From NCBI GenBank assembly GCA_026874595.1, contig CM049316.1, forward strand, positions 48,238,695 through 48,302,694: DNA of 64,000 bases, written 5' to 3'. Source of the stretch: Sipunculus nudus. Taxonomy: Eukaryota > Annelida > Sipuncula > Golfingiida > Sipunculidae. Position numbers and translations under genes: made by a program. The notes beneath the pieces are model-generated. The model was not told the DNA's origin, did no database searches, and was given only the letters and a program-made list of their open reading frames with translations. Numbering within the stretch: the stretch's first letter is position 1; every line of letters begins with the position of its first letter. Shown one piece after another: positions 1 through 44,276 of the stretch.

Positions 1-1286
1 CATCATCATAAATCTCAATCTTGTCAGATAACACCACATCATGCATACAAATGTTTATTTATTTTTTAACACAAAAAATATATCTTTTAAATCTGCAAAA
101 CAATAAATATCTAAAAAAATAATACTTGATTTAGATTTCAAAATTTTTAATTGTGTCTTTATTTATCCATAATGTGCTTCATATTTTATAATAATTTAAG
201 CATACTGATGGGTTCATTTATATTTGTTAAAATCATTTAAAAGAAAATTGATTTCTTTAAAAATGCTACATTACACAACATTGCATCTTCTGGATTACAC
301 CTTGAATTATTTTTTCAAGGAAAGTTTTTGCATATTGGAGTGGAAACAGCATTACAATTAAGGAGATACAGTGAAAACAATAACAATTACTGCATAACAC
401 TTGGTGGGTTGGGTTTGTGGGGGGGGGGTGATTGGGGTGGTGATATGAGAATAACTGTACACCTGTCACAGCAGGGGATCTCCCCCAGTGACTGTAACAA
501 ATCAGAAACCCTGGCATAGCTGACTTCCAGTGACCTGGAGTGGGACCTTGCATCTGTAATCAAAGCAAGTGACTACAGAAAAAAAAAAATCAATAACTAG
601 CTTAATTTTCAAGCTTTTATTTTCAAATTTCAGATTTCGACAAACTAAATATTTATGTTTACATGCTGTGAAAATTAAATCAATGGTGCTTACAGGAAAA
701 AAAGTGCCATGGTCAAAGTTGGGCAAAATTTAAGGTACTGATTTTTTTTTATGCTAATAACTTAAAAAATTTACAAAATTCAGATCTAATTTTGGGTAAA
801 CAATTGAATCTTGATTAAATAAAGTTATATTCCTGAAAAAAAAGTCTCCAGCTTCAGCAATTCTCATGTTAAGTGAGCAAATATATTTCCTGATTTTTAA
901 AAAATTGCATTATATTTGGGCCTATAACTTCAAAATAATACCCAATACTGACCTAATTTTTGGTATGTGCACAGAAAATGTATGGAAGAATATGAATACT
1001 AAATCTGATCAAAAACAGATTAGTGGTCTTGATATTAGGCAGCCTTAAAGTGTAACAATGGCTTTTTTATGGAAAACAGAGGTTTTTCCTTAATATCTCG
1101 AAGGAACAAAGTTCTAATGACCCAATTTTTGGTATGGAAGGAGATTTTGGGGACATCTAATGGTATGCAGAATTTTGGATTCGTAGGTCCAACAGTTTTA
1201 AAACGTACCCTGTTAACGGACGGCCGGACGACGGACAAAGGACCACGACTATAGCTCAGATGACTTATAGTCAGCTGAGCTAAAAA
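1..1286 (+). repeat. Interspersed repeat, body B, 5' part cut by the window edge
   Basis: Matches the inner and 3' parts of the B copies at 25.1-26.3, 30.1-31.8 and 42.9-44.3 kb. It contains the G-run segment near 420 and the 'ATATTAGGCAGCC' segment near 1034. It ends with the shared 31-bp hairpin (1252-1282: arm TAGCTCAGATGACT, loop TAT, arm AGTCAGCTGAGCTA) followed by AAAA. Confidence 0.75.
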
Positions 1287-6123: not shown

Positions 6124-8773
6124 AACAAGGGACCTATGGGTCACGGCGCTCAGCTGTTATATATGATAAAAAAATATGATTTAGAAATGAGGCACATGCT
6201 GGTTTTGTGTGGTAATAAGTATAAGCTGTATTATGAGTTGTTGTTGTTAAGCTTATGTATGATTTTGATAGTACCTTTGGAGACAGAGAAGAGAATAGAT
6301 TTCATTTATTTTATTAACAAATGGAGTACTATTGTCACACAGATTTTGACTTGGCCATATAACTTATAAGCAGAACATATAATATAAGAGTTTAACTATT
6401 TATTAAAAAAATTACAAATATTGTCCCAGATATAATTTTTATTTAAAATAATAAGAGAATCGTATGATTTTTAAAATGAAATATAACTGATATGATTATT
6501 AAAATAATATTAAAGAATATATTCATGAATGCATTCATGAATACATTTGGAAAGTATTTGCACTGGTATTCATATACTTTCATTTTTTCCTGAATTCCCA
6601 TTCTTTATGCAAGAAATTTTATAATGGAGTACATATTCATATTCGTATTTAAATACAATTGCAAAGTATTCCCACCATGTCTGGTATTTATTCAGTTTTC
6701 ACCAAACAATGGTGTTGAGAATCCAGAATGTACAAAATTCACACATTTAAATAATGATCATAAGTACCTGGTTTTATGGCTTTTATTTATATTAAAAAAA
6801 AAATAAATGTGATATATTTATTTGGGACTAATTTCACATCAATGTACACACTAGACACAGTAGGAATCTAGATTAATATTATCAACTGCATCTTTGTCTA
6901 TCATTAATTTCCTTCATATGATCCCTAATGATCAGTAATGAATAATATGATTTATTTTTTTTTATTATTAAAATTGAACTGAAAAATGCCATAGGTGACT
7001 GCATGGTGTTATTTGGAATATGTGACATTCTATCTATCAATACAAGATTCTTATATCATCAGTAACTGCAAGTTATCTCCCTATTAATATAAACTAACAA
7101 ATTCCTTTTCTATTTTTCTTTAATTTGTTATTAAAAACCAATAAAAATTGATTAACTTATTGTTATGTTGTTGGTTAAAACTACTTGATGAGTTGGGTTG
7201 GACACCTGGATCAACTGTGGCTGGCCATAAGCTGCCTTGCTGCCCCGGTATCTGCCTCGCCTCAAGCGTGCATAATTTGCTGAAAGTTCAACAAGGTCAA
7301 CATACAGGTGACTCAAGAGTGGCTGGAGAGAGCCAAGGTCTGACATGGTCTCATAAAAACATTAATAAAAGCTACAATTTTTTGCCAATTTCTTTCAGCT
7401 TTCTAAACTAAAAAGCTGAAATCCATGTGTGTGCATGATATGAAAATTATATAAACAGAGCTCACATTAAACAAAAGTGAAATGGTCAAAGTTGGGCAAA
7501 ATTTAAGGTACTAATTTTATATTTATACTAATAACTTATAAAATTTTAAAAATTCAGAACTAATTTTGGGTATTCAATTGAATCTTGATTAAATAATGTT
7601 ACATCCCTGACAAAAAATCTCTAGCTTCAGCAAGCCCCTTGTTAAGGGAGTAAATATATTTCTTGATTTTTTACAAAGTGCATATTGTTTGGGCCCATAA
7701 CTTAAAACAATTACGCAATACTGACATCATTTCTGGCATGTGCACAGAGAATGTATTGAAAAACATGTATATTATATATGATTAAAGTCAGATCAGTGGT
7801 TTTGATATTAGGCAGTATTGAAGTGTAATAATGGGTTTTTAATTGAAAAATGAAGTTTTTCATTAATATCTCAAAGGTATTAAGTCCTAGTGACCAAATT
7901 CTTGGCATGGTAGGGAATTTTAGAGACATCTAATTGTATGCCAGATTTTAGGAACTGAGAGCTTAAGCTGGGGAGCTGAGCTCTTGCAAACTGCATAACA
8001 CTAGCCTGATGTAAACAATATGTTACATGGTGCTTGAAAACTTGAATAAAATCTACAGTTTTTGATCAACTGGTTTCAAATTTTTGGTGTTAACAGACAA
8101 AATGTTAACAAAAACATGCTGAGAAAATTAAATCCACAGTACTTACAGGAAAAAAACGTGCCATGGTCAAAGTTAGGCAAAATTTAAGGTACCAATTTTT
8201 AGTTTTTGCTAATATTTTAAAAAATTTAAAAGATTTTGATCTAATTTTGGGTATACAATTTAATTTTGATTAATTAAAGTTATATTACTTGAAAAAAAGT
8301 CCATAGCTTTAACAAGTTTTGTGTTAAGTGATCAAATATCTTTCCTGATTTTTTACAAAATGCATTATGTTCTGGCCCATAACTTTCTTAAATTATATAA
8401 TACAGACATAATTTCAGGCATGTACATAGGAACTATATAGAGGAATATTTATGGTAATTATGAGGAAAAACAGATGAGTGGTTTTGATATTAGGCAGCCC
8501 TAAAGTGTGAAAATAGGTTTTTAATAAAAAATTGAGGTTTTTCCTTAATTTCTCAAAGGAACAAAGTCGCAAAGACCCAGTTTTCGGCTTGGTAGGAGAT
8601 CTTGGGGACAGCTAACATTATGCCAAATTTTGGATTCCTAAGTCTTACGGTTTCAAAACGTGCCACATCTACGGACGGACGGACGGACGGACGGACGGAC
8701 GGACAGACGGACGGACGACGGACAATGGACCACGACTATAGCTCAGATGACTTATAGTCAGCTGAGCTAAAAA
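6124..8773 (+). repeat. Interspersed repeat, body A, full-length copy 1
   Basis: Starts ACAAGGGACC, then a variant of the 12-bp palindrome and CGGCGCTCAGCTG. The body matches 16414-19046 and 37607-40223 closely over about 2.6 kb. It ends with a GGAC run (about 8671-8718), the 31-bp hairpin and AAAAA. The body has an 84-codon frame near its 5' end that recurs in other copies, but it shows no coding signature. Confidence 0.8.
8671..8718. repeat. GGAC tetranucleotide run
   Basis: Imperfect (ACGG)n of about 12 units just before the 3' hairpin of an A repeat. Equivalent runs sit at the same place in the copies near 18940, 26176, 40131 and 44166, with different lengths. Confidence 0.9.
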
Positions 8774-9798: not shown

Positions 9799-11446
9799 AC
9801 AAGTGACCCATGGGTCATGACGCTCAGCTGCCAAGCATGACCTGCGACATCATGGGCTGCAATTCACAACTTCTAGTAAAATTGTTGCAGAACCTATATG
9901 TCAATTTTGTTTAAACTTTCTACATTGCCATAAATTCTTATCATATATGTCTGGTTAAAACATAGTGAATGATGGTCTGAGGCAAAATGTATGGTTGTTG
10001 AGCTATCAGGAACTAATCCCACAGCTTGCTCGATACCTGTCAGTCTCAAAAGGAATACCACACAGGCCACATATAAGATCAAAATATAGCAAAAGATCAA
10101 GGAAATCCATGCAAGAATTATTGAGAAACGGGTGCTTCCATATTAATTTTTATTCAATACAAGCCAACTGTACTGAGCTTTCATAAATGATGGTCATATT
10201 TATTAAGAAATCTTTGACCCAATGCAAGATTACATTAATATACATCCCACTGCATTCACTTTAATAGTTCATGAGATAATATGTTCTAAAGGAATTTAAA
10301 GATGGCGTCCTGGTGGCCATATTGGATTTCTGACAGGTCGGAAATTGAACAACAAACATCCTATAAAAGGGACCAAACATCATAAAAAAATCACAGAAAC
10401 TGTCCTGGCAAAAAGATTTCTAAAATGGCTACCTAGCAGACATAATGGTTTTCTGACAAGTCACACATCCTCCAATAAGACACTAAACTTGTAGCAATTG
10501 CTTCAAAGAATGTAACAGTTATGAATGTCCAAAACAATTCAAAAGGCATGATCAGGTTGGAGAGCTCTCATATCAAATTTATGAACATGCAAATGTAAAA
10601 AGTGCAAGTCCAATTTGTTTTAATTATCAGCTTGCTATTCAATGGGGTCAGCAGGGTAGGTAAACTGCAAAACCTAAAAGAAATGAAATACAGAAAGCAT
10701 CACTAAGAGTCTTGTAATCAAATAAAGCCATCCTAAATGCAGGTACAGACCCACATATTATCAGAACAAACACTTGCTGGTATATCTGATGATTTGTATA
10801 ATAATATTCAGATATCTAGAAAACTAAGTTTATTGCTATGATTCCATGATATAAACTGCAAAATGTTCCCATCATTTTATAAATCAGTAGCTAAACTTAA
10901 CACTTAACTCTCATAGTCTTAATGCCTGGCCAAAGCATTCCGGCAACAGTGTTTTTGTTATGCACTAATGATATATCCTTATCACTCTATGAGCTGATAC
11001 AAAAGGGAGTCATATATCACAAGTGTCACTGACAATTATGGGCACATAGTGAGATGTATCAGTTGTGAGTGCCATATGGTTATATATACAAGAAAACAAG
11101 AAAAATAGAGATGGTCTACAAAATAATTTATTGTGAACATCCCTGATCTATGACCTTGGCCTTTTGCCCACATATCAACTGGATTGTTTCTAAATGATGG
11201 GTAACTACTAACCACTTAACCACATCTGGCCGGGTGTAATTACTTGGCAACTTTCTCAAAAGAACTAAGTCACAGTGACCAAGTTTTCAGTCTTGTGGGG
11301 ATCTAGGTGACATCTAACAGTATGCTGATTTTCGGATTTGAGGGTCTAACAGTTTCAAAACATGCAAGTCTAAAAGACAGATGGATGGATGATGGACAAT
11401 GGACCATTACTATGCTCAGATGACTTATAGTCAACTGAGCTAAAAA
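9799..11446 (+). repeat. Interspersed repeat, body G, copy 1
   Basis: Starts ACAAGTGACCCATGGGTCAT (14-bp palindrome TGACCCATGGGTCA) and ends with the shared hairpin (with one extra mismatch) and AAAAA at 11446. The body is duplicated at 31772-33217, including 'AATGCCTGGC..AAGCATTC' and 'AACAGTGTTTTTGTTATG'. The 3' end lies 24 nt from the CMIP exon 4 donor. Confidence 0.75.
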
Positions 11447-12856: not shown

Positions 12857-15800
12857 ACAAGGGACCCATGGGTCACGGCGCTCAGCTGATCGTGATTGGA
12901 CTATAAATGTTTCTCCAATGTGATACTATATCGAGTCGATAAAGCTTATGAATATCATGTACATGTTTGGCTATTATAAAGGAATGTAATGTAATATGTG
13001 AGTAAATGATAAATGAAATTACCTGACTGATGGATTAATAGAGTCAAATAAAGTGGTTTATTTTCTATTTATTTAGGAGGGGTTGAAAATTGTGATATAT
13101 TTGAGCAAATATGAATGCAATGACAGCAGTAATAAGCAGTAGTAGATGATAAGGCTATTTGAAGGATCTAAAGTGTATGGTAGTCTGCAAGCGTTCAATT
13201 TGACAGATATGATGTTATGATTAACTATGCTGATGAAGTGATTTATGAATATGTGACTGTATGACACAATATCCCATTAGTCTTGACAAGGTACATTATT
13301 GTGATGCCCACTATGTCTACATATTACACAATATTGACATAATTTCTGGCATGTACATAGGTACCTATGGACGAATAGTTATACAAAATATTAAAGTATG
13401 AATATATCTGATTCATCTTGTTCTTGCTTACTGAGGCTGACTTTGGGAAGGGGTTCGGAGAAGGGAAAAGTGAGGGCAGCACGAAGGTGGATGTAGAAAT
13501 ATTCTATGTTTTTCATTTATATAAGAATATGAAAAGCTAAGAGGAAAGGGGCCCTCCTACTTGGTTATAGTAAAGTTCTAAATATATGATTGCAAACTAA
13601 TACTCTGACAAGACTGTCATGAAGAAAAACAGTAAAAGTTTTGAGATACTGTGTTGCATACGAAAATTTACAGTTGGACAGGCAAGTGGACAGAATGGAC
13701 TAATACCTTTATTTCACTTTCAAGAGAATAATGGATTTAAGTTTATATATAATCCTATTTTTTTAAGCAGATCCCCTTTTCCATTAAGAAGTTTTTATCT
13801 GTATCATTTTTTATTTACAGGTTTATAAATTTTTAATTAAAAAACCTGAAAATATAAGTTAAAATATTAGAATTGTTGCAAAAGTTGCAATCATTATATA
13901 TACAGAGTAAAAAAACATTGGGTCATATTATGCATTCACATATATTTTATTATTTTTAAATCATAAATGTTTTAACTGATTTTAAAAGAAAATAATGCCA
14001 CAACATGGCATCTACAAGAATATTCCTTGAATCACTATTAAAAAGTTTTGCATATTGGAGTTTTCAGGACATGCTTAATTTTATTCACCAAAATAAAATA
14101 AAAGTAAATTTGACAAAATAAAACATCTTTTCAAATAAAATATACACACTGTTATTTGAATGAGGGACAAACAATATCATTGTGCTAATTACTATCCCAG
14201 TTTTAATTAATTACTGGAATTAATAGTCAATTTCACACCTGGTGAAGTTTTTACTCTTCTGAAGTAAGGAATTACTTATCTCATGAACATCCAGACTTTC
14301 ACAGCAATACACCACTTTGTGGACACAATTAAATGTACACTTTAATCATTGTAACCCTGGTGGTTCAATACAAAATCTAAAATATAGCATGTCCAAGAAT
14401 AAAATAAAATACAGAAAAATTATAACATTCATCTAGTTTATGCACCAGCTAGGGGGGGGGGATGAGTGCAGGGCGAGGGGAAGCCCACTAGTAGTGGCCA
14501 AGCTGGGCCAAGGTAAGCTGCCTGGGGTGGGTTACATAATGCAAGTGAAGGCTGTACTACTAGGTGGGCTAGATGTAAACAACACTTGACATGGTGTGTG
14601 AAAACATGAATAAAAGCTATTCATTCCAATCAATTTCTTTTGAAAGTTCAGATTTTAAAAGATTAAATCCTTATGCATATATGCTGGGAAAATTAAATCA
14701 ACAGTGCCAAAGTTGGACAAAATTTAAGGTATTGTTTTTTATTTATGCTAATAACTTGAAAAATTTGCAAAATTCAGATCTAATTTTGGGTAAACAATTG
14801 AATTTTGATTAAATAAAGTTATATTCCTGAAAAAAGGTCTCTAGGTTCAGCAATTCTCATGTGAGTAAATATATTTCCTGATTTTTTTAAAAATTGCATT
14901 ATGTTTTGGCCCATAACTTCAAAATAATACTCAATACTGACCTAATTTTTGGTATGTTCATAGAAAATGTATAAAAGAATGTGAATACTAAATACGATCA
15001 AAAACAGATCAGTGGTTTTGATATTAGGCAGCCTTGAAGTGTAACAATGGCTTTTTTTTATGGAAAACGGAGTTTTTTTCCTTAATATCTCGAAGGAACA
15101 AAGTCCTAATGACCCAATTTTCGGTATGGTAGGAGATTTTGGGGACATCTAAAATTATGTGAACAGCCTGGGGAGCATGGAGATGTGAACAGTGACCACA
15201 GTGGACTGCTTGACAATGTAAGGGAATACAACAAGAGCCTCCCAAAAAATTCAATAACTAGCCTAATTTTGCAGCTTTTATTTTCAAATTTCAGATTTTA
15301 ACAGAATAAATCCTTATTTGTACATGCTGTGAAAATTAGATCCACAGTTCTTACACGAAAAAAACGTGCCATGGTCGAAGTTGGGCAAAATTTAAGGTAC
15401 CAATTTTTTATTTTTGTTAATATTTTAAAAAATTTAAAAGATTTTGATCTTATTTTGGGTATACAATTTAATTTTGATAAAATAAAGTTATATTACTGGA
15501 AGAAAAGTCCATAGCTTTAACATGTTTTGTGTTAAGTGATCAAATATCTTTCCTGATTTTTTCCAAAATGCATTATGTTTGGGTCCATAACTTTTTTAAA
15601 TTATATAATACCGACCTAATTTCTGGCATGTACATAGGAACTATATAGAGGAATATTTATGGTAAATATGAGGAAAAACAGATGAGTGGTTTCAATATTA
15701 GGCAGTCCTGAAGTGTGAAAATTGGTTTTTAATAAAAAATTGAGGTTTTTCCTTAATTTCTCAAAGGAACAAAGTCGCAAAGACCCAGTTTCCAGCTTGG

Positions 15801-15977
15801 TAGGAGATCTTGGGACATCTAACATTATGCCGAATTTTGGATTCCTAGGTCTTACGGTTTCAAAACGTGCCACATCTACGGACGGACAGATGAACGGATG
15901 GACAGACGGACAGACGACGGACGACAGACAATGACCACGACTATAGCTCAGATGACTTATAGTCAGCTGAGCTAAAA
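12857..15977 (+). repeat. Interspersed repeat, body C, copy 1 (possibly two fused parts)
   Basis: Starts ACAAGGGACCCATGGGTCAC with the full 12-bp palindrome and ends with the GACGGAC stretch, hairpin and AAAA (15947-15977). The segment 13506-15150 matches 53450-54890 and 60235-61260. The last 800 bp use the same 3' module as A and B. A G-run lies at about 14452-14461. No coding capacity was recognised. Confidence 0.7.
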
Positions 15978-16413: not shown

Positions 16414-19046
16414 ACAAGGGACCTATGGGTCACGACGCTCAGCTGTTATATATGATAAAAAAATATTTTTTTAGAAATGAGGCACATGCTGGTTTTGTGT
16501 GGTAATAAATATAAGCTGTATTATGAGTTGTGGGTGTTTAGCTTATGTATGATTTTGATAGTATCTTTGGAGACAGGGAAGAGGATTGATTTCATTTATT
16601 TTATTAACAAATGGAGTGCTATTGTCACACAGATTTTGACTTGGCCATATAACTTATAAGCAGAACATATAATATAAGAGTTTAACTATTTATTAAAAAA
16701 ATTACAAATATTGTCCCAAATATAATTTTTATTAAAAATAATAAGAGAATCATATGATTTTTTAAAATGAAATATAACTGATATGATTATTAAAATAATA
16801 TTAAAGAATATATTCATGAATGCATTCATGAATACATTTTGAAAGTATTTGCACAAGTATTCATATACTTTTATTTTTACCTGAATTCTCATTCATTATG
16901 CAAGAAATTTTATAATGGAGTACATAATCATATTCGTATTTAAATACAATTACAAAGTATTTGTCTGGTATTTATTCAGTTTTCACCAAACAATGATTTT
17001 GAGAATCCAGAATATACAAAATTCACACATTTAAATAATGATCATAAGTACCTGGTTTTATGGCTTTTATTTATATTAAAAAATAACTGTAAAAAATTCA
17101 TTTTGGACTAATTTCACATCAATGTACACACTAGACACAGTAAGAATCTACTAGTAGATTAATATTATCAACTGCATCTTTGTCTATCATTAATTTCCTT
17201 CATATAATCCCTAATGATTAGTAATGAATAATATGATTTACTTCTTTATCATTAAAAATGAACTGAAAAATGCCATAGGTGACTGCATGGTGTTATTTGG
17301 AATATGTGACATTCTACCCATCGATACAAGATTCTTATATCATCAGTAACTGCAAGTTAATTTCCTGTTATTATAAACTAACAAATTCCTTTTCTATTTT
17401 TCTTTAATTTGTTATTAAAAACCAAGAAAAATTTATTAATTTATTGTTTATTGTTATGTTGTTGGTTAAAACTACTAGATGAGTTGGGTTGGACACCTGG
17501 ATCAACTGTGGCTGGCCATAAGCTGCCTGGATTCTCGCCTCAAGCGTGCATAATTTGATGAAAGGTCAACAAGGTCAACATACAGGTGACTCAAGAGGGG
17601 CTGGAGAGAGCCAAAGTCTGACAGGGTCTCATAAAAAACATTAATAAAAGCTACAATATTTGGCCAATTTCTTTCAGCTTTCTAAACTAAAAAGCTGAAA
17701 TCCTTATGTGTGCATGTTATGAAAATTATATCAACAGTGCTCTCAGGAAACAAACGTGCCATGGTCACAGTTGGGCAAAATTTAAGGTACTAATTTTATA
17801 TTTATACTAATAACTTATAAAATTTGAAAAATTCAGAACTAATTTTGGGTATTCAATTGAATCTTGATTAAATAATGTTACATCCCTGACAATAAAATCT
17901 CTAGCTTCAGCAATGCCCTTGTTAAGGGAGTAAATATATTTCTTGATTTTTTACAAAGTGCATTATGTTTGGGCCCATAACTTAAAAAAAATACACAATA
18001 CTGACATCATTTCTGGCATGTGCATAGCGAATGTATAGAAAAATATGTATATTATACATGATCAAAGTCAGATCAGTGGTTTTGATATTAGGCAGTCTTA
18101 AAGTGTAACAATGGGTTTTTAATGGAAAAATGAAGTTTTTCATTGATATCTCGAAGGAATTAAGTCCTAGTGACCAAATTCTTGGCATGGTAGGGGATTT
18201 TGGAGAAATCTAACTGTATGCCAAATTTAAGGAACTTAGAGCTGAAGCTCGGGAGCTGAGCTCTAGCAAACTGCATAACACTAGCAATATGTGACATGGT
18301 GCTTGAAAACTTGAATAAAATCTACAGTTTTTGATCAACTGGTTTCAAATTTTTTGTGTTAACAGTTGAAATGCTACCAAAAACATGCTGTGAAAATTAA
18401 ATCCACAGCAGTTACAGCAAAAAAACGTGCCATGGTCAAAGTTGGGCAAAATTTAAGGTACCAATTTTTTATTTTTGCTAATATTTTAAAAAATTTAAAA
18501 GATTTTGATCTAATTTTGGGTATACAATTTAATTTTGATTAATAAAAGTAATATTACTAGAAAAAAAGTGCTTAGCTTTAACAAGTTTTGTGTTAAGTGA
18601 TAAAATTTCTTTCCTGATTATTTACAAAATGCATTATGTTTGGGCCCATAACTTTTTTAAATTATATAATACAGACCTAATTTCTGGCATGTACATAGGA
18701 ATTATATAGAGGATTATTTATAGGAAATATGAGGAAAAACAGATGAGTGGTTTTGATATTAGGCAGTCCTGAAGTGTGAAAATAGGTTTTTAATAAAAAA
18801 GTGAGGTTTTTCCTTAATTTCTCAAAGGAATGAAGTCGCAAAGACCCAGTTTTCGGCTTGGTAGGAGATCTTGGGGACATCTAACATTATGCTGAATTTT
18901 GGATTCCTAGGTCTTACGGTTTCAAAACGTGCCACATCTACGGACGGACGGACGGACGGACGGACGGACGGACGGACAGACGGACGGACGACGGACAATG
19001 GACCACGACTATAGCTCAGATGACTTATAGTCAGCTGAGCTAAAAA
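16414..19046 (+). repeat. Interspersed repeat, body A, full-length copy 2 (inserted in a D repeat)
   Basis: Nearly identical to 37607-40223 over about 2.6 kb, which implies recent activity or duplication. It starts ACAAGGGACC, has the GGAC run at about 18940-18993 and ends with the hairpin and AAAAA. One T insertion relative to the 37.6-kb copy breaks the short frame near its 5' end. Confidence 0.8.
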
Positions 19047-22849: not shown

Positions 22850-24530
22850 ACAAGGGACCTATGGGTCACGACGCTCAGCTGTTATATATGATAAAAAAAT
22901 ATTATTTAGAAATGAGGTACATGCTGGTTTTGTGTGGTAATAAATATAAGCTGTATTATGAGTTGTTGTTGTTTAGCTTATGTATGATTTTGATAGTTCC
23001 TTTGGAGACAGGGAAGAGCATTGATTTCATTTATTTTATTAACAAATGGAGTACTATTGTCACACAGATTTTGACTTGGCCAAATAACTTATAAGCAGAA
23101 CATATAATATGAGTTTAACTATTTATTAAAAAAAAATTACAAATATTGTCTCAAATATAATTTTTATTAAAAATAATAAGAGAATCATATGATTTTGTAA
23201 AATGAAATATAACTGAAATGATTATTAAAATAATATTAAAGAATATATTCATGAATGCATTCATGAATACATTTTGAAAGTATTTGCACGAGTATTCATA
23301 TACTTTCATTTTTACCTGAATTCCCATTCTTTATGCAAGAAATTTTATTCATTTTGGACTAATTTCACATCAATGTACACACTAGACACAGTAGGATTCT
23401 AGATTAATATTATCAACTGCATCTTTGTCTGTCATTAATTTCCTTCATATGATCCCTAATGATTAGTAATGAATAATATGATTTACTTCTTTATCATTAA
23501 AATTGAACTGAAAAATGCCATAGGTGACTGCATGGTGTTATTTGGAATACGTGACATTCTACCCATCCATACAAGATTCTTATATCATAAGTAACTGCAA
23601 GTTAATTTCCTGTTATTATAAACTAACAAATTCCTTTTCTATTTTTCTTTAATTTGTTATTAAAAACCAATAAAAATTTATTAATTTATTGTTTATTGTT
23701 ATGTTGTTGGTTAAAACTACTAGATGAGTTGGGTTGGACACCTGGATCAACTGTGGCTGGCCATAAGCTGCCTGGATTCCATGTATGCCTCGCCTCAAGC
23801 ATGCATAATACAGGTGATTCAAGAGGGGCTGGAAAGAGCCAAAGTCTGACAGGGTCTCATAAAAAAAATTAATAAAAGCTACAATTTTTGCCCAATTTCT
23901 TTCAGCTTTCTATGCTGAAATCCTTATGTGTGCATGATATGAAAATTATATCAACAGTGCTCACGGGAAAAAAACGTGCCATGGTCACAGTTGGGCAAAA
24001 TTTAAGGTACTAATTTTTTATTTATACTAATAACTTATAAAATTTGAAAAATTAAGAACTAATTTTGGGTATTCAATTGAATCTTGATTAAATAATGTTA
24101 CATCCCTGACAAAAAAATCTCTAGCTTCAGCAATGCCCTTGTTAAGGGAGTAAATATATTTCTTGATTTTTTACAAAGTGTATTATGTTTGGGCCCATAA
24201 CTTAAAACAATTACGCAATACTGACATCATTCTGGCATGTGCATAGAGATTGAAAAATATGTATATTATTTATGATTAAAGTCAGATCAGTGATTTTGAT
24301 ATTTGGCAGTCTTGAAGTTAACAATGGGTTTTTAATGGAAAAATGAAGTTTTTCATTAATATCTCGAAGGTATTAAGTCCTAGTGACCAAATTCTTGGCA
24401 TGGTGGGGGTTTTTGGAGACATCTAACTGTATGCCGAATTTAAGGAACTTAGAGCTGAAGCTGGGGAGCTGAGCTCTTGCAAACTGCATAACACTAGCTT
24501 GATGTAAACAATATGTTTCATGGTGCTTGA
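22850..24530 (+). repeat. Body A, 5' part of a chimeric A/B repeat
   Basis: Begins ACAAGGGACC as other A copies and follows body A up to 'CATGGTGCTTGA'. There it switches at 24530/24531 to body B 'GTCACTGTGCTCAGCTGACG'. Intact A copies instead continue 'GCTTGAAAACTTGAATAAAA'. Confidence 0.75.
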
Positions 24531-26290
24531 GTCACTGTGCTCAGCTGACGTTAACCTTGAAGGTAAAAATCTAAAATAATATCAAATGGAGATAAAGTGT
24601 AAGAGGAAGAGGTAATAAAGGCCATGGTTGGTTTATATGATTGGTTTGTATTGATGAGCAAGAAATTGTTGCAAATAATATTTTGTGACATGACCATGTA
24701 TTCCTAATGTTGAAACTGAAGCATGTGAGCAGTTTGTGAACAAATGATCTGTACAATTACCATGATCATTAGTTGGCTTTTTGATTAACTGTTGACTTTT
24801 CAGTAGTTTACACATTTGTTCAATCGAATCTTTTTTTTGTATAATATATATTATTAAATATATGTTTTTTTTTATGAAATGTATACAGTTGAAATATAAC
24901 TAATTAACAACATAAAACATGGTAAACAAAGCCTATCTCAAATTCTGCTGATGCAGGAAAATAATGAACAAATGTTTGTAATAAATCCTCATTTTTTATC
25001 ACATTAATTTTTTTTTAATTTTAGTTTATATTTCTATACATTTTCAATATAACATATATATCTGAATATAAAAGTTGATTCATAATTCTCAATTGCATCA
25101 TCATAAATCCAATCTTGTCAGATAACACCATATCATGCATACAAATGTTTATTTATTTTTTACCACAAAAATATATCTTTTAAATCTGCAAAACAATAAA
25201 TATCTAAAAAAATACTTGATTTAGACTTCTCAATTTTTAATTGTGTCTTTATTTATCCATAATGTGCTTCATATTTTATCATAATTTAAGCACACTGATG
25301 GGTTCCATTATGATTGGTAAAATCATTTAAAAGAAAAATGATTCTTTAAAAATGGTACATTACACAACATTGCATCTTCTGGATTACACCTTGAATTACT
25401 TTTTCAAGGAAAGTTTTTGCATATCAGAGTGGAAACAGCATTACAATTAAGGAGATACAGTGAACACTTGGTGGGTTGGGTTTGGGGGGGGGGGTGGGGT
25501 TGGGGGGGGGGGGGGTGATTGGGGTGGTGATATGAGAATAACTGTACACCTGTCACAGCAGGGGATCTCCCCCAGTGACTGTAACAAATCAGAAATCCTG
25601 GCATTGCTGACTTCCAGTGACCTGGAGTGGGACCCTGCATCTGTAATCTGTAATCAAAGCAAATGACTACAATAGAGCCTCAAGAAAAAAATCAATAACT
25701 AGCTTAATTTTCAAGCTTTTACTTCCAAATTTCAGATTTAAACAAATTAAATATTTATGTTTACATGCTGTGAAAATTAAATCAATGGTACTTACAGAAA
25801 AAAAACGTGCCATGGTCAAAGTTGGGCAAAATTTAAGGTACTGATTTTATTTTTATGCTAAATACTTAAAAAATTTACAAAATTCAGATCTAATTTTGGG
25901 TAAACAATTGAATCTTAATTAAACATAGTTATATACTTGGGAAAATAGACTCTAGTTTCAAAATTGTTCATGTTAAGTGAGTAAATATTTTTCCTGATTT
26001 TTTACAAAGTCCATTATGTTTGGGCCCATAACTTAAAGAATTTATACTTAACAGACTTAATTTCTGGCAAGTCGCAAAGACCCAGTTTTCGGCTTGGTAG
26101 GAGATCTTGGGGACATCTAACATTATGCTGAATTTTGGATTCCTAGGTCTTACGGTTTCAAAACGTGCCACATCTACGGACGGACGGACGGACGGACGGA
26201 CGGACGGACGGACGGACGGACAGACGGACGGACGACGGACAATGGACCACGACTATAGCTCAGATGACTTATAGTCAGCTGAGCTAAAAA
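24531..26290 (+). repeat. Body B, 3' part of the chimeric repeat
   Basis: Lacks the first bases of the 5' end but otherwise follows 29458-31771 and 42344-44276. About 150 bp are deleted near 26070 relative to those copies ('TTTCTGGCA' joins 'AGTCGCAAAGACCC'). The GGAC run at 26176-26238 is the longest in the window. It ends with the hairpin and AAAAA. Confidence 0.75.
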
Positions 26291-27660: not shown

Positions 27661-28842
27661 ACAAGTGACCCACGGGTCATGACGCTCAGCTGACCAGGAA
27701 GACATTGACAAAAGTAATTTTATCATCTGAATGTCAAATTTGAATGAAATACTTTTTCCAAACTTGACCTTTTGTATAAAATTATCCAATATTCATTGGG
27801 GTACTATGGAGCTCTGTAGCATGAAGGATATGGGTAACAGACACCTATTTTCAAGGTTTACAAGATGACTTTTCAGGGGTCTCCCAGCATGTCAAAAAAT
27901 AAAATTCTAGGTCCAGTTATTATGATTTGTGCCCTGTTAACAGATGACCAAATGTTTATTCTGGGGGGTATTTCAAAGCCGCATAGGATGAAGGATATGG
28001 GTAACAGAGATGTAATTTCAGGTGCACAAGGAGACTTTTCAGGGGCCTCCCAGCATATCAAGAAAGGAGATTCTAGGTCAAGTCATTATAATTTGTGCTC
28101 TGTTAACAGATGACCAAATCTTTATTCTGGGGAGTACTTCGGAGCCCCAGAGCATGAAGGATATGGGTAACAGAGACCTAATTTCAGGTTTCCAAGATAA
28201 TTCATGGACCTCCCTGCATGTCAAGAAAGAAGTTTCTAGGTCCAGTCATTATGATTTGTGCCCTGTTAATATATGACCAAATCTTTATTCTGGGGGGTAC
28301 TTCAGAGCCCCATAGCTCACAGAATATGGGTAACAGGGACCTTATTTTGGGTTTCCATGTAGACCTTTTATGGGCTTCCCTGGAGGTGAGGACAGAAGAT
28401 TCTAGGTCCAGTCATTATGATTTGTGCCCTGTTTACAGATGACCAAATGTTTAAAGATCACAAAAGTAGAGAAAAAAAATCGTAAAAAATAAAAAAAATA
28501 TAGGTGGCGCCACCAATCTTCAGAAATTGATGAAACACTCCATGATCAATATCCATGCAAAGAATCATGGTGATTAATGCATTAGTTGTTCAGATACTTG
28601 AGCTTCTGTATTAAATTTTGCATTATTCTGGGGGGGGGTACTTCAGAACCCCATAGCTCGAAGAATATAGGTCACAGTGACCTAATTTCAGGTTTACAAG
28701 GAGAATTTCCATAGACCTCCCAGGATGTCAAGTAAGAAGATTCCAGTTCTAGCGGTTATGTTTTGTGCCCTGTTAACGGACAGACGACGGACAAAAGGTG
28801 ATCCCTATAGCTCAGATGACTTACAGTCAGCTGAGCTAAAAA
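27661..28842 (+). repeat. Interspersed repeat, body E, with about 163-bp tandem units
   Basis: Starts ACAAGTGACCCACGGGTCAT. Four units (about 27800-28455) repeat 'ATGAAGGATATGGGTAACAG' and 'ATTATGATTTGTGCCCTGTT' every 160-165 bp. A fifth diverged unit carries AGGTCACAGTGACCT (28669-28683) and GGTGGCGCCACC (28503). It ends with the GACGGAC stretch, hairpin and AAAAA. Related to 51330-53280 and 56830-57735. Confidence 0.7.
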
Positions 28843-29457: not shown

Positions 29458-30005
29458 ACAAGGGACCTATGGGTCACTGTGCTCAGCTGACGTTAACCTT
29501 GAAGGTAAAAATCTAAAATAATATCAAAAGGAGATAAAGTGTGAGAGAAAGAGGTAATATAGGCCATGGTTGATTTATATAATTGGTTTGTATTTATGAG
29601 CGAGAAATTGTGCAAATAATATTTTGTGACTTGACCATGTGTTTCCTAATGTTTAAACTGAAGCATGTGAGCAGTTTGTGAACAAATGATCTGTACTATT
29701 ACCATGATCATTAGTTGGCCATTATGATTAACTGTTGACATTTCAGTAGTTTACACATTTGTTCAATTGAATCTATTTTTTTTTGTATAATATATATTAT
29801 TAAATATATATGTATTTTTTATTTTATGAAATGTGTTAAGTTAAAATATAACTAATTAACAACATACATACAGGGCAAACAAAGCCTGATCTCGAATTCT
29901 GCTGAGGCAGGAAAATAATGAACAAATGTTTGTATTAGATCCTCCTTTTTTTATCACATCAATTTGTTTTTATTATAAGTTTATATTTCTATACATTTAA
30001 AAAAA

Positions 30006-30008
<3 letters not shown>

Positions 30009-30084
<76 letters not shown>
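30009..30084. repeat. AT dinucleotide microsatellite, about 38 units
   Basis: Pure AT alternation. Other B copies have only CATATATATCTG-like short stretches here, so this one has expanded. Confidence 0.95.
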
Positions 30085-30086
<2 letters not shown>

Positions 30087-30563
30087 GAATATAAAAGTTG
30101 ATTCATAATTCTCAATTGCATCATCATAAATCTCAATCTTGTCAGATAACACCACATCTTGCATACAAATGTTTATTTATTTTTTACCACAAAAACATAT
30201 CTTTTAAATCTGCAAAACAATAAATATCTATAAATATAATACTTGATTTAGATTTCAAAAATTTTAAATTGTGTCTTTATTTATCCAAAATGTGCTTCAT
30301 ATTTTATAATTTAAGCATACTGATGGGTTTAATTATATTTGTTAAAATTATTTAAAAGAAAATTGATTTCTTTAAAAATGCTACATTAACACAACATGGC
30401 ATCTTCTGGATTACACCTTGAATTACTTTTTCAAGGAAAGTTTTTGTATATTGGTCTGGAAACAGCATTACAATTAAGGAGATATAGTGAAAACAATAAC
30501 AATTACTGTAAAACACTAGGTGGGTTGGGTTTCGGGGAGGGGATTGGGGTGGTGATATGAGAA

Positions 30564-30945
30564 TAAAGCTGTGTTTCCATGTATCCGTAAAAATCGTATC
30601 CGCAAAAGACGTACATACGCTCCCTAGTGCGCAGTCCGTCAAAACTGTTTCCATTAGTACGTGCGTTTTTCTTGCGGATACCCCTTCACGTGCCTCTTTT
30701 GAAACTGCAAGGACGGCAGGAAGAAGGTCAATATGTCAGGGCACTGTTGGGAAATGTAGGCATTTTTGCCATTAGCAAAACGGATGAATCGCTCACCGAT
30801 CCGTTTTCGATGCTGTCCGTTTTTGCGGATACGCATGCGGAGCACGTTAAAACATACATATGGAAACAGTTCATCTTAAAAAGAGGGATCCGATTTTTTG
30901 CGTACAAGACGACGAGATTTACGGATGAATGGAAACACAGCTTAA
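30564..30945. mobile_element. PIF/Harbinger-like MITE, copy 1, TSD TAA
   Basis: The element spans 30567-30942 (376 bp), flanked by TAA on each side. TIRs are AGCTGTGTTTCCAT, with further matching ATCCGTAAA. The uninterrupted sequence is visible in other B copies (GAGAATAACTGTAC). The interior is rich in CG and in GCGGATAC/GTATCCGC words and has no transposase. A 3-bp TWA duplication is typical of PIF/Harbinger. Confidence 0.85.
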
Positions 30946-31771
30946 CTGTACACCTGTCACAGCAGGGGATCTCTCCCAGTGACTGTAACAAATCAGAAAC
31001 CCTGGCATAGCTGACTTCCAGTGCCCGGGAGTGGGCTGCGGGCATCTGGTCCAAATGACTACAATAGAGCCTCAAGAAAAAATTCAATGCCTAGCCTAAT
31101 TTTCAAGCTTTCAATTTCAAATTTAAACAGATTAACTACTTAAATGTACATGCTGTGAAAAGTAAAACAACAGTACTCACAGGAAAAAAATGTGCCATGG
31201 TCAAATTTGGGCAAATCTAAGGTAAGTTGATTTTATTTTTATGTTAATAACTAAAAATATTTACAAAATTTAGATCTTATTTTGGGTATACAACTAAATA
31301 TGAATTAAACAAAGTTATATACCTGGAAAAAATGTCTATATCTTTAAAAATTTTCAAATTAGGTGATTAAATATTTTTTCCTGATTTTTTACAGTGTCTA
31401 TTATGTTCAGGCCTGTAACTTAAAGAAATTATGCATGACAGACTTAATTCCTGGCATGTGTAAAGGAAATACATGAGAGAATACTTCAGGTATATATAAA
31501 GAAAAACTGATCAGTGGGATTTGATATTAGGCAGTCCTGAAATGTGTAAATATGATTTTAATTTTTTGAAGGAACGAAGTCACAGTGACCCAGTTTTCGG
31601 TTTGGTAGGAGATTTTGGGGACACCTAACAATATGCTGAATTTCGGATTTGTAGGTCTAACGGTTTCAAAACATGCCAGTCTAAAGGACGGACGGCACGA
31701 AGGAGAGATGGACTGACAAAAGACAATGGACCACAACTATAGCTCAGATGACTTACAGTCAGCTGAGCTAA

Positions 31772-33217
31772 ACAAGTGACCCATGGGTCATGACGCTCAG
31801 CTGCCAAGCATGACCTGTGACATCATGGACTGAGATTCACAACTTCCAGTCAAATTTTGAAGAACCAATTTGCCAATTTGTTGAAAATTTTCTATGACAA
31901 CAGAAATATATATCACCTATGTCTGGTTAAAACACAGTGAATTGATGGTCTGAGGAAAATGCATGATTGTTAAGCTATCAGGAACTATTCCTACAGCTTG
32001 CTTGAAACCTGTCAGTCTCAAAAGGAACACCACAAAGGGCAAATATAAGATCAAAATATATAGCAAAATTCAAGGAAATACATGCAAGAATTATTGAGAA
32101 ACAGGTGCTTCTGTATGAATTTTTATTCAATACAAGCCAACTGTACTGCACTTTTATAAATGATGGTAATATTTATTCAGAAATATTTGACCCAATCCTT
32201 TACAAGATTACATAAATATACATCCAACTGCATTCACTTTAACTGTTCTTGAGATAATATGATCAAAAGGAATTAAAAGATGGTTGCCTGGTGGCCATAA
32301 GGACTTCTGACAAGTCTGAAATCAGACAACAAACATTCTCTAAATCGGACTAAACATTAAAGAAAAATTGCTGAAACTGCACTGAAGAAAGAATTTCTAA
32401 GGTGGCTAACTGGCAGACATAATGGATTTCTGACAAGTATGACATTTGATATCCCACATTCTCCAATAAGAGACCAAACTAGGGGCAAATTATCCAGTGA
32501 TGAATGCCCAAAATAATTCAAAAGGCATGTCCAGGCCCTCATATCAGATTTATAGATATGCAATTGTAAAAAGTGTAAGTCAAATTTTTTTTTATTATCA
32601 CTCTGCTTTTCAATGGGGTCAGCAGGGTAGGTAAACTGCCAAACCTGAAAGAAAAGAAATGCAGAAAGCATGACTAAGAGTCTTGAAATAAAACAAAAAG
32701 CCATCCTAAATCAAGGTACACATCCACATATTATGAGAACAAACACTTGCTTTTATATGTGGTGATATATATTAAAATATTCAGATATCTAGGAAACTAA
32801 GTTTATTGCTAGGATTCCATAAAATAAACTGCAAAATGTTCCCATCATCTTATAAATCAGTAGCTAAACCTTAATACTATACTCTCATGGTCTTAATGCC
32901 TGGCTGAAGCATTCTGACAACAGTGTTTTTGTTATGAAGTAAGGAGGTACTTATCACTGAGCCTTATCACTTAATAGGCTGATACAAAAGGGAGTCATAT
33001 GTCACCAGTGTCACTCACAATTACAGCTACACAGGGAGATGTACCAGCTGGAGTGGGATGGTTATATATACAAGAAAAATAGAGAAGGTCTATAAAATAA
33101 GTAATTGTGAACATCCCTGACCTATGACCTTGGCCTTTTGCCCATATATCAACTGGATTCTTTCTAAATGATGGGTAACTACTAACCACTTAAATCTGGT
33201 GTAATTATTTGGCAACC
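31772..33217 (+). repeat. Interspersed repeat, body G, copy 2
   Basis: Starts ACAAGTGACCCATGGGTCAT directly after the preceding B repeat's end. Parallel to 9799-11240 throughout, then diverges into TGACCT-rich sequence at about 33218 instead of the usual 3' module. Confidence 0.75.
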
Positions 33218-33961
33218 AATGGGTGAATAACTTTGACCTGCAACCTTTAACCTGCTGACCAGCTGACCCCAAAATCAATAAGTTATTTATTCAAGCAAAA
33301 AGACCCATAAATATGAAGTTTGAGTCAAACTGAGTTATGCATAGATGTGGCATATGTGAAAGAATGAAGGTTTGGGTTGAACAGTTACACTTGAAATATG
33401 CTCACAAGCATTAAGAACAATTAAATATTGTGACCTTGACCTTCGACTTTTTGACCTCAACATCAATAGGCTTCTTCTCTTATTGGTAGGTAAGCCATAT
33501 ATGACAGATGGAAGGTACAGATTGAAAAGTTTGCCTGAAAATGACTCCACGCAAGAAGTGGGTGCTGTGAACTTGACCTTTGACCTCAAAATCAACAGGT
33601 CTTTTCCCCTGTTGGCAGAGAAGCGATATCAGTGCTGGAAGGTTTGGAATGAAAAGTCTAGCTTGAAATGTGTCCACAAACTTTTCAAAGAAGTGGATCC
33701 TGTGACCCTGACCTTTGACCTTGTGACCTCAAAATCTATAGGATTTTTCTCCAACTTAGTAGGTGAGCTATATGTGAAAGATCAAAGAACTGGGATGAAA
33801 GGGTTGGCTTAAAATGCATCCACAGGCTTTTCAAAGAAGAGGCTCCTGTGACCTTGACCTTTGACCTTTTGACCTCCAAAAAATTATGGTTCTTCACCTG
33901 TTGGTAGGTGAGCTGTATGTGAAAGATGGAAGGTTTGGGATGAAAATTTTGTCTTAAAGAG
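33218..33961 (+). repeat. Body F: about 140-bp tandem units with nuclear-receptor DR1 motifs, copy 1
   Basis: Units contain 'GTGACC(Y)TGACCTTTGACCT', 'CAAAATC(A/T)A(C/T)AGG', 'GTAGGTGAGCTATATGTGAAAG' and 'AAATGCATCCACA'. Perfect TGACCTTTGACCT at 33574-33586, 33709-33721 and 33855-33867. Related to 55010-56060. Confidence 0.7.
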
Positions 33962-35247
33962 TTATTTCTGGGGGGTGCAAACACACCCCACAACTTCGAG
34001 AATATAGGTCGCAGTGACCTAATTTCAGGTTTGCAAGGAGATCTTTTTATAACCTCTAAGACTGCTTAGGGTTCATGGCCCTATCCCCTACGGTTACGAT
34101 TTGTGCCCTGCTAACGGACGGACGGCCGGCCGGACGGCCAGACGGACGGCCGGCCGGACGGACAGACGGAAGGACGACGGACAAAGACCCATCACTATAG
34201 CCCAGCATGACTGAAAGTCAGCTGAGCTAAAAACTTATTGAGCTCAAAAAAATTATGGTTCTTCCCCTGTTGGTAGGTGAGCTGTATGTGAAAGATGGAA
34301 GGTTTGGGATGAAAATTTTGTCTTAAAGAGTTATTTCTGGGGGGTGCAAACACACCCCACAACTTCGAGAATATAGGTCGCAGTGACCTAATTTCAGGTT
34401 TGCAAGGAGATCTTTTTATAACCTCTAAGACTGCATAGGGTTCAAGACCCATCACTATAGCCCAGCATGACTGAAAGTCAGCTGAGCTAAAAACTTATTT
34501 GACCTCAAAAAAATTATGGTTCTTCCCCTGTTGGTAGGTGAGCTGTATGTGAAAGATGGAAGGTTTGGGATGAAAATTTTGTCTTAAAGAGTTATTTCTG
34601 GGGGGTGCAAACACACCCCACAACTTCGAGAATATAGGTCGCAGTGACCTAATTTCAGGTTTGCAAGGAGATCTTTTTATAACCTCTAAGACTGCATAGG
34701 GTTCATGGCCCTAGCCATGAAAATTTTGTCTTAAAGAGTTATTTCTGGGGGGTGCAAACACACCCCACAACTTCGAGAATATAGGTCGCAGTGACCTAAT
34801 TTCAGGTTTGCAAGGAGATCTTTTTATAACCTCTAAGACTGCATAGGGTTCAAGACCCATCACTATAGCCCAGCATGACTGAAAGTCAGCTGAGCTAAAA
34901 ACTTATTTGACCTCAAAAAAATTATGGTTCTTCCCCTGTTGGTAGGTGAGCTGTATGTGAAAGATGGAAGGTTTGGGATGAAAATTTTGTCTTAAAGAGT
35001 TATTTCTGGGGGGTGCAAACACACCCCACAACTTCGAGAATATAGGTCGCAGTGACCTAATTTCAGGTTTGCAAGGAGATCTTTTTATAACCTCTAAGAC
35101 TGCATAGGGTTCATGGCCCTAGCCCCTACGGTTACGATTTGTGCCCTGCTAACGGACGGACGGCCGGCCGGCCGGACAGACGGAAGGACGACGGACAAAG
35201 ACCCATCACTATAGCCCAGCATGACTGAAAGTCAGCTGAGCTAAAAC
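33962..35247 (+). repeat. Recent tandem amplification of a repeat 3' part, five copies
   Basis: TTATTTCTGGGGGGTGCAAA starts at 33962, 34331, 34592, 34739 and 35000 (spacings 369, 261, 147 and 261). The copies are nearly identical. Four end with a variant hairpin (AGCCCAGCATGACTGAAAGT, then CAGCTGAGCTAAAA). Only the first and last keep the GGCCGGCC/GGAC run. Each copy carries AGGTCGCAGTGACCT. Unit-length differences arise from internal deletions. Confidence 0.85.
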
Positions 35248-42343: not shown

Positions 42344-44276
42344 ACAAGGGACCTATGGGTCACTATGCTCAGCTGACGTTAACCTTGAAGGTAAAAATCT
42401 AAAATAATATCAAATGGAGATAAAGTGTAAGAGGAAGAGGTAATAAAGGCCATGGTTGGTTTATATGATTGGTTTGTATTGATGAGCAAGAAATTGTTGC
42501 AAATAATATTTTGTGACCTGACCATGTGTTCCCTAATGTTGAAACTGAAGCATGTGAGCAGTTTGTGAACAAATGATCTGTAAAATTACCATGATCATTA
42601 GTTGGCTTTTCGATTAACTGTTGACATTTCAGTAGTTTACACATTTGTTCAATCAAATCTTTTTTTTGTATAATATAAATTATTAAATATTTTTTTTTTA
42701 TGAAATGTATACAGTTGAAATATAACTAATTAACAACATAAAACATGGCAAACAAAGCCTGATCTCAAATTCTGCTGATGCAGGAAAATAATGAACAAAT
42801 GTTTGTAACAAATCCTCATTTTTTTATCACATCAATTTTTTTTTTAATTTAAGTTTATATTTCTATACATTTCAATATAACATATATATCTGAATATTAA
42901 AGTTGATTCATAATTCTCAATTGCATCATCATAAATCTCAATCTTGTCAGATAACACCACATCATGCATACAAATGTTTATTTATTTTTTACCACAAAAA
43001 TATATCTTTTAAATCTGCAAAACAATAAATGTCTAAAAAAAATACTTGATTTAGATTTCACAATTTTGAATTGTGTCTTTATTTATCCATAATGTGCTTC
43101 ATATTTTATCATAATTCAAGCATACTGATGGGTTCCATTATGATTGGTAAAATCATTTAAAAGAAAAATGATTTCTTTAAAAATGTTACATTAAACAACA
43201 TTGCATCTTCTGGATTATACCTTGAATTACTTTTTTAAGGAAAGTTTTTGCATATCAGAGTGGAAACAGCATTACAATTAAGGAGATACAGTGAAAACAA
43301 TAATACTGCATAACATTTGGTGGGTTGGGTTTGCGGGGGGGGGGGGGGGGGGGGGGGGGGGGAATGGGGTGGTGATATCAGAATAACTGTACACCTGTCA
43401 CAGCAGGGGATCTCCCCCCAGTGACTGTAACAAATCAGAAACCCTGGCATAGCTGACTTCCAGTGACCTGGAGTGGGACCCTGCATCTGTAATCTGTAAT
43501 CAAAGCAAATGACTACAATAGAGCCTCAAGAAAAATATCAATAACTAGCTTAATTTTCAAGCTTTTACTTCCAAATTTCAGATTTAAACAAATTAAATAT
43601 TTATGTTTACATGCTGTGAAAATTAAATCAATAGTACTTACAGGAAAAAAACGTGCCATGGTCAAAGTTGGGCAAAATTTAAGGTACTGATTTTATTTTT
43701 ATGCTAATTACTTAAAAAATTTACAAAATTCAGATCTAATTTTGGGTAAACAATTGAATCTTAATTAAACATAGTTATATACTTGGGAAAATAGACTCTA
43801 GTTTCAAAATTTTTCATGTTAAGTGAGTAAATATTTTTCCTGATTTTTTACAAAGTCCATTATGTTTGGGCCCATAACTTAAAGAATTTATACTTAACAG
43901 ACTTAATTTCTGGCATGTACATAGGAACTATATAGAAGAATATTTATGGTTAATATGAGGAAAAACAGATGAGTGGTTTTGAAATTAGGCAGTCCTGAAG
44001 TGTGAAAATAGGATTTAAATAAAAAATTGAGGTTTTTCCTTAATTTCTCAAAGGAACGAAGTCGCAAAGACCCAGTTTTCGGCTTGGTAGGAGATCTTGT
44101 GGACATCTAACATTATGCTGAATTTTGGATTCCTAGGTCTTACGGTTTCAAAACGTGCCACATCTACGGACGGACGGACGGACGGACGGACGGACGGACG
44201 GACGGACAGACGGACGGACGACGGACAATGGACCACGACTATAGCTCAGATGACTTATAGTCAGCTGAGCTAAAAA
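42344..44276 (+). repeat. Interspersed repeat, body B, copy 3
   Basis: Starts ACAAGGGACC. G-run of 28 at 43335-43362, GGAC run at 44166-44222, then the hairpin and AAAAA. Confidence 0.8.
43335..43362 (+). repeat. Poly-G run (28 G)
   Basis: An uninterrupted G tract in the B body. Homologous positions in other B copies have about 8-15 G (420-428, 25483-25515). Confidence 0.9.

What the first reader, a model, noticed from the sequence alone, without database searches (positions are those of the whole stretch)
6124..8773. Modular repeat superfamily with palindromic 5' end and hairpin 3' end but unrelated bodies
At least 15 insertions start with the same 5' end (ACAAG, then GACCCATGGGTC or a one-base variant, then GCTCAGCTG: at 6124, 9799, 12857, 16414, 22850, 27661, 29458, 31772, 37607, 42344, 48819, 49784, 51330, 53371 and 56830). 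About 15 end in a GGAC run plus a 31-bp hairpin closing with CAGCTGAGCTAAAA. Between these ends lie several bodies (A, B, C, E, G) with little mutual similarity. The 5' GCTCAGCTG is the complement of the 3' CAGCTGAGC, an asymmetric inverted repeat. Hairpin end, no clear target duplication and swapped bodies recall Helitron/Helentron biology, yet the 5' end is not TC and no Rep/helicase is seen. It could be an undescribed class of end-defined, cargo-swapping elements.
Basis: partly seen in the sequence, partly recalled or inferred. Interest (0 to 1): 0.75.

Follow-up and report, generated by a model that had tools for sequence, protein, structure and literature searches.

The report
Helentron-type rolling-circle transposons, all one orientation
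The shared-end repeats are non-autonomous rolling-circle transposons of a known kind (HINEs, moved by Helentrons), with matching helper elements in the same genome; what is unusual is that nearby copies mostly point the same way.

Summary
In detail: all 15 listed 5' ends and 15 places with the 3' hairpin end are present, beyond chance. Read on the minus strand, the elements have the anatomy of Helentron-associated interspersed elements (HINEs): subTIR with complementary IR, GTCC microsatellite, body often with tandem arrays, 3' subTIR, palindrome, CTTGT end, T|T insertion, no target duplication. Three of ten RepHel loci fetched from the same genome match the HINE 3' terminus with 0 mismatches. 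One has a 2342-codon open frame with Rep, PIF1 helicase and a sub-threshold endonuclease match, and HINE 5' ends upstream. So these are new HINE families of a known kind; same ends with different bodies is already described (PMC7492417, PMC4067079). About 17,500 exact 3' termini occur genome-wide. The unexplained part is orientation: copies are co-oriented locally (64 of 66 along 1.1 Mb of contig C1; every detected end in this window, which lies in introns of a co-directional host gene), whereas poly-T tracts on C1 show no significant coherence. Replication-coupled, transcription-coupled and duplication explanations remain open.

The parts
6125..8772 (-). HINE a (body type shared with d and i), nested in an older related repeat
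   Evidence: ends; two paralogous empty sites in L041 and L042; body:
9799..11445 (-). HINE b (CACTTGT-type 3' end; 92% of it covered by h)
12857..15977 (-). HINE c
16414..19045 (-). HINE d (body as a)
22850..26289 (-). HINE e; no match to its 200-bp flank in the sequence in hand
27661..28841 (-). HINE f: 166-bp array body; 3' end type and 5' array match the RepHel element L029/30
29458..31772 (-). HINE g, carrying a nested TIR transposon; joined head-to-tail to h
31772..35246 (-). HINE h with the 5' end amplified in a 261/408-bp tandem array
37607..40222 (-). HINE i (body as a), inside a TIR transposon
42344..44275 (-). HINE j, inserted in the right TIR of the same transposon
48820..49785 (-). 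HINE 3' end k; extent of the element uncertain (range given runs to the next start)
49786..51328 (-). HINE 3' end l; extent uncertain
51329..53370 (-). HINE 3' end m; extent uncertain; contains a LINE fragment on + (51374-52135)
53371..56829 (-). HINE 3' end n; extent uncertain
56830..61406 (-). HINE o or a nested composite; ends at the recognisable HINE 5' end 61370-61406
1..1285 (-). 5' part of a HINE cut by the window edge

Best explanation
These are HINEs: non-autonomous derivatives of Helentrons (rolling-circle transposons encoding Rep, helicase and endonuclease), lying on the minus strand. Shown: the terminal anatomy, T|T insertion without target duplication, and RepHel loci in the same genome that end in the same 3' terminus, one of them also with HINE 5' ends upstream. 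Inferred from the family: the helper protein acts in trans at the 5' subTIR/IR end, a single strand is displaced and copied up to the 3' subTIR plus palindrome, which acts as the stop signal, and the strand is joined into a T-T site. Because only short ends are recognised, whatever lies between them is carried along; internal deletion, capture and recombination between elements with the same ends would give different bodies with the same ends, and repeat expansion gives the central arrays.
For: Anatomy as in PMC4067079 and PMC7492417. 5' subTIR/IR hairpin folds far better than shuffles in both copies tested (z -4.7 and -4.4). GTCC microsatellite and central arrays. Flanking base A on the + strand, i.e. 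T on the HINE strand, in 28 of 31 copies examined. Two paralogous empty sites without target duplication and an uninterrupted TIR counterpart. 143 PF14214 matches in the genome, 0 in 14 control genomes. 3 of 10 RepHel loci match the 32-position 3'-terminus pattern with 0 mismatches. Two of these, 98% identical over 7 kb on different contigs, lose homology 2 bp after that terminus. Rep motif 2 in the Helentron form in all three. Rep, PIF1 and Exo_endo_phos on one frame.
Against: 7 of the 10 RepHel loci fetched lack these ends. The endonuclease match in L029 is below Pfam's cut-off (21.4 against 24.5 bits) and none was found in the shorter frames of the other two loci with the HINE terminus. The 5' end of L029/30 is ambiguous (35 or 759) and no HINE 5' end was found near L033 or L037. 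The 3' palindrome of two diverged copies does not fold better than shuffles (z -0.57 and 0.15). No RPA domain appeared in the scanned frames. No transposition was observed.
Confidence: 0.93

Rival explanations
1. An undescribed class of end-defined, cargo-swapping elements.
For: Several bodies share only the ends.
Against: All the structural features tested fit Helentron/HINE and RepHel partners with the same terminus exist; same ends with different central parts is already described.
Confidence: 0.03
2. Canonical Helitron, SINE or TIR element.
For: Hairpin near an end; inverted repeats at both ends.
Against: No TC start or CTRR end, T|T and not A|T insertion, no target duplication, inverted repeats at unequal depth, 0 tRNA genes found in the window.
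Confidence: 0.02
3. Co-orientation, model 1: insertion strand is coupled to the replication fork (single strand inserted into one template strand, as reported for IS200/IS605), so HINE strand records fork direction.
For: Strand domains up to about 1.1 Mb with sharp switches, shown by both termini; 230 of 230 alignments of 20 kb of a minus domain to window repeats are reversed; bacterial precedent (PMC5371812, passages).
Against: In the interior of C1 coherence fades within about 100 kb; Rep-bearing copies within 300 kb agree in only 13 of 23 neighbour pairs; no fork data; the only host gene seen is co-directional, which fits model 2.
Confidence: 0.3
4. Co-orientation, model 2: insertion (or survival) strand follows transcription of the host gene.
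For: The window lies in introns of a CMIP-like gene on the minus strand and the HINEs are on the same strand; coherence of tens of kilobases is the size of long genes. Poly-A signals are nearly balanced on the two HINE strands (94 and 101), so selection against poly-A signals is not an obvious cause.
Against: One gene only; the 1.1-Mb domain would need a very long gene or a run of co-directional genes; gene strand in the C1 domains could not be determined.
Confidence: 0.3
5. Co-orientation, model 3: local duplication and nesting of already inserted elements.
For: Some spacers in the window are related to each other (8838-9748, 15978-16412, 19051-20553, 58910-60236); nesting is frequent.
Against: Copies whose 200-bp flank matches nothing else in hand still agree: window 7 of 7 +, C1 + domain 4 of 4 +, C1 - domain 2 of 2 - (unmatched only against the sequence in hand, copies with a shorter flank dropped).
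Confidence: 0.32

Closest known systems
Cg_HINE elements of Crassostrea gigas (PMC7492417; abstract, two sections and passages read)
   Same: 5' subTIR, complementary IR, GTCC-type microsatellite, central tandem repeats, 3' subTIR, palindrome, TT insertion, no target duplication; similar flanks with unrelated central repeats
   Different: Different terminal sequences as far as the text shows; RepHel elements with the same 3' terminus found here; orientation domains not reported in the parts read (that paper states integration in both orientations)
DINE-1/HINE and Helentrons (PMC4067079; abstract and two of three parts of the Results read)
   Same: SubTIRs near the 5' end and deeper at the 3' end, 3' palindrome, TT target, RepHel-endonuclease protein, Rep motif 2 signature
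   Different: No RPA domain found in the frames scanned; a DUF6570 domain and a protease-like domain (Herpes_teg_N or OTU match) precede Rep in the frames scanned here
IS200/IS605 insertion sequences (as described in the review PMC5371812, passages)
   Same: Single-strand transposition; insertion strand there follows replication direction
   Different: Bacterial, different enzyme; coupling is established there and only a hypothesis here

Membership tests
Helentron/HINE | Inverted subTIRs, close to the 5' end and deeper at the 3' end (11 bp or more identical defines a family) | tested here: met
   GCTCAGCTG/CAGCTGAGC, 9 bp, in window elements; GCTCAGCTGAC/GTCAGCTGAGC, 11 bp, in L029/30, read by eye. 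Window elements with 9 bp fall short of the 11-bp family rule.
Helentron/HINE | IR complementary to the 5' subTIR | tested here: met
   Hairpin -10.6 kcal/mol, z -4.7 and -4.4 in the two copies folded
Helentron/HINE | Palindrome near the 3' end | tested here: met
   GACCCATGGGTC ends 6 bp before the end; as single strands the two diverged copies folded are no better than shuffles
Helentron/HINE | TT target, no target duplication | tested here: met
   Flank T on the HINE strand 28 of 31; two empty sites for one element
Helentron/HINE | Autonomous partner with the same ends encoding Rep/helicase/endonuclease | tested here: met
   3 of 10 RepHel loci have the 3' terminus, 1 also HINE 5' ends upstream; endonuclease match sub-threshold in that one
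Helentron/HINE | Rep motif 2 with S between G and P and F/Y-x-R just before it | tested here: met
   FFYRVEFQQRGSPHIH and variants in L029, L033 and L037
Helentron/HINE | RPA-encoding frame | tested here: inconclusive
   Not seen in the 8 frame pieces scanned; the rest of the elements was not scanned; not present in all described Helentrons
Canonical Helitron | 5' TC, 3' CTRR, insertion between A and T | tested here: not met
   5' TTTTAGC, 3' CTTGT, T|T
TIR (cut-and-paste) transposon | Target duplication and terminal inverted repeats at equal depth | tested here: not met
   No duplication at the empty sites; inverted repeats at unequal depth

The most novel reading that the evidence does not exclude
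In this genome the strand of Helentron/HINE insertion is not random but is set locally by a directional host process (replication fork or transcription), so that thousands of copies form strand domains of tens of kilobases up to about a megabase: a fossil map of that process in a eukaryote, written by a single-strand transposon.
Probability: 0.4. Interest if true: 0.78.

Novelty: new member of a known kind. Interest (0 to 1): 0.45.

Why it matters
As a classification it is ordinary: abundant HINE families with RepHel partners in the same genome. The orientation domains would matter more: if insertion strand follows fork or transcription direction, static assemblies rich in Helentrons would carry a readable record of that polarity, and how single-strand eukaryotic transposons choose their target strand could be tested by comparing copies with annotation and replication data.

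Tried and rejected
Rejected: SINE, TIR element or canonical Helitron for the repeats (no target duplication, unequal inverted repeats, other termini). Rfam at gathering thresholds: 0 matches; tRNA genes: 0. Target-tract asymmetry as the sole cause of co-orientation is unlikely: T5 against A5 runs are 56 and 60 in 15.0 kb of unmatched window sequence, and poly-T14 tracts on C1 show no significant strand coherence (runs 38 against 42.2, p 0.21). One detail goes the other way: between 0.06 and 1.17 Mb of C1, 10 of 11 listed poly-T14 tracts lie on the HINE (minus) strand, 7 of them in one 25-kb cluster.

Controls that failed: a LINE tail (548 and 387 copies) and a TIR-transposon motif (340 copies) were too sparse to compare at tens of kilobases; a SINE motif recalled from memory had 0 matches; a third repeat proved to be mostly the inverted ends of one transposon family (40 matches). 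So there is no dense transposon control, only poly-T tracts. IMG/VR exact scan for the 3' terminus: 0. Gene strand in the C1 domains could not be found: six read-through frames of 3.9 kb of L042 gave only one sub-threshold match (19.3 bits against a cut-off of 60), and five open frames from the C1 loci gave only two weak ones (E 0.037 and 0.093). The first-pass fuzzy search timed out.

Full report
Observation. The 5' motif is present at all 15 listed positions. A 32-position pattern scan recovers 14 of them with 0-4 mismatches, misses 48819 (deletion) and adds diverged copies at 3575 and 27585; 20 Markov shuffles of the window gave none at that threshold. The 3' hairpin end occurs at 15 places, four of them in one tandem amplification. 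Nine elements pair cleanly: 6125-8772, 9799-11445, 12857-15977, 16414-19045, 22850-26289, 27661-28841, 29458-31772, 37607-40222 and 42344-44275 (21,532 bp). A tenth, 31772-35246, has an amplified end. Bodies are mosaics more than unrelated.

Orientation and identity. Read on the minus strand the order is TTTTAGCTCAGCTGACT (5' subTIR), complementary IR, GTCC microsatellite, body often with arrays, CAGCTGAGC (3' subTIR), GACCCATGGGTC palindrome, CTTGT. This is the anatomy given for HINEs in PMC4067079 (abstract and parts 1-2 of 3 of the Results read) and PMC7492417 (abstract, two sections and passages read). The 5' end folds into a hairpin better than shuffles in both copies tested; the 3' palindromes of two diverged copies do not. 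The 3' terminus has 8698 + 8823 exact copies in the 1.43-Gb genome, reversed-pattern control 0; the 5' terminus 10,139 + 9,795, control 0.

Boundaries. L041 and L042 hold the sequence flanking HINE a without the element and show no target duplication. HINEs i and j sit in a TIR transposon. Removing them brings its two terminal tags to 3153 bp apart, near four of 12 other tag pairs (3221-3329 bp; the other eight lie at 1711, 4243, 4574, 5989, 8648, 11627, 11943 and 27803 bp; pairs picked by eye from 40 matches). The left TIR is the uninterrupted counterpart of the right TIR broken by j (diverged, so base-level junctions are uncertain).

RepHel partners. PF14214 gives 143 matches in the genome (150 of 195 candidates scored, so a lower bound) and 0 in 14 control genomes. 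I fetched 20 kb around ten of them. Three match the 3'-terminus pattern (32 positions, a few degenerate) with 0 mismatches; seven do not. The L029 and L037 copies (98% identical over 7 kb, different contigs) lose homology 2 bp after that terminus. L029/30 has a 2342-codon open frame, scanned in two pieces: DUF6570, Helitron_like_N, PIF1 and a sub-threshold Exo_endo_phos match, with candidate 5' ends upstream at 35 and 759. All three carry the Helentron form of Rep motif 2. Their terminus variants, CACTTGT and CCCTTGT, are the two main HINE end types of the window. A 277-bp array dispersed in the window matches DNA upstream of the RepHel frame in L029, L037 and also L039, which lacks the HINE terminus.

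How it works. Best reading: the RepHel protein acts in trans on short ends, as proposed for other Helentrons, and the body is passenger sequence. This is inferred from the family, not shown here. HINE f shares the 3' end and 5' array of L029, and its 5' end reads the same as that at L029 position 759 over about 40 bases by eye; it looks like an internal-deletion derivative of that family.

Co-orientation. In the window, self-comparison gives 358 same-strand alignments (127,459 bp) against 3 opposite (629 bp); two of those three involve TIR transposons. The C1 lists are unselected (the tool lists places from the start of C1), but they are one chromosome. The 3'-terminus list of 100 forms 14 runs and the 5'-terminus list of 100 forms 13, against about 30.5 expected with strand composition kept (minimum of 20,000 shuffles 18 and 13) and about 50 for independent strands. 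The two lists merged and collapsed (139 of 200 places) read 64 + and 2 - from 0.06 to 1.17 Mb, then 11 -, 4 +, 4 -, 11 +, then a mixed stretch near 2.06-2.24 Mb, 24 + to 3.13 Mb, and mixed beyond. In 20 kb of the minus domain all 230 alignments to window repeats are reversed. Further along C1 (86 copies of one subtype, 3.9-19.1 Mb) same-strand pairs are 15 of 18 below 20 kb, 14 of 20 at 20-50 kb, 12 of 20 at 50-100 kb, 27 of 57 at 100-200 kb, 93 of 149 at 200-500 kb and about half beyond. Control: poly-T14 tracts on C1 (100 listed, 83 after collapsing) give 8 of 15, 15 of 24 and 31 of 55 at 5-20, 20-50 and 50-100 kb, runs p 0.21, against 40 of 45, 57 of 62 and 67 of 79 for HINEs (82 after collapsing; beyond 1.2 Mb 21 of 26, 24 of 29 and 16 of 23). 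Against: Rep-bearing copies of mixed families within 300 kb agree in only 13 of 23 neighbour pairs; in the 0.06-1.17 Mb domain 10 of 11 listed poly-T tracts lie on the HINE strand, 7 in one cluster; no dense transposon control could be built.

Which process. The window lies in introns of a CMIP-like gene on the minus strand (PF23066, E 1.6e-21 and 3.8e-15; four exons placed by tblastn with a recalled human sequence, the fourth weak), so the HINEs here are sense to the gene. That favours a transcription link or is coincidence. The 1.1-Mb domain favours replication. Related spacers and nesting favour duplication, but copies whose flank matches nothing in hand still agree, 7 of 7, 4 of 4 and 2 of 2. 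I cannot decide between these. In eight library searches (open-licence papers only) and in the passages I read I saw no report of Helitron or Helentron orientation domains; subscription papers are mostly not in that library.

Verdict.

Noticed in passing
63007-62858, 48169-48011, 35590-35534, 11549-11469 (weak): Exons of a host gene like C-Maf-inducing protein (CMIP) on the minus strand; most of the window is its introns.
   Followed up: partly
30566-30943 (+) and 61514-61908 (-): Two copies, in opposite orientation, of a small transposon with inverted ends AAGCTGTGTTTCCAT; one lies inside HINE g. About 340 copies of an internal motif genome-wide.
   Followed up: partly
36550-44396: A TIR transposon of about 3.3 kb enlarged by two HINEs; its tag occurs 40 times in the genome, 26 of them in 13 facing pairs 1.7-28 kb apart. 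Superfamily not determined.
   Followed up: partly
51374-52394: 3' end of a non-LTR retrotransposon with an RT remnant and a (TTATC)n tail, on the + strand.
   Followed up: no
L030 and L022 (RepHel frames): A Herpes_teg_N-type match (L030) and an OTU protease match (L022), with DUF6570, precede Rep in Helentron frames.
   Followed up: no
L002:819-1055: An open frame beginning like histone H3 next to a HINE in the C1 domain, apparently truncated.
   Followed up: no
G000:C1:3110-12885: Poly-T tracts spaced about 3.25 kb apart near the start of contig C1, suggesting a tandem array there.
   Followed up: no
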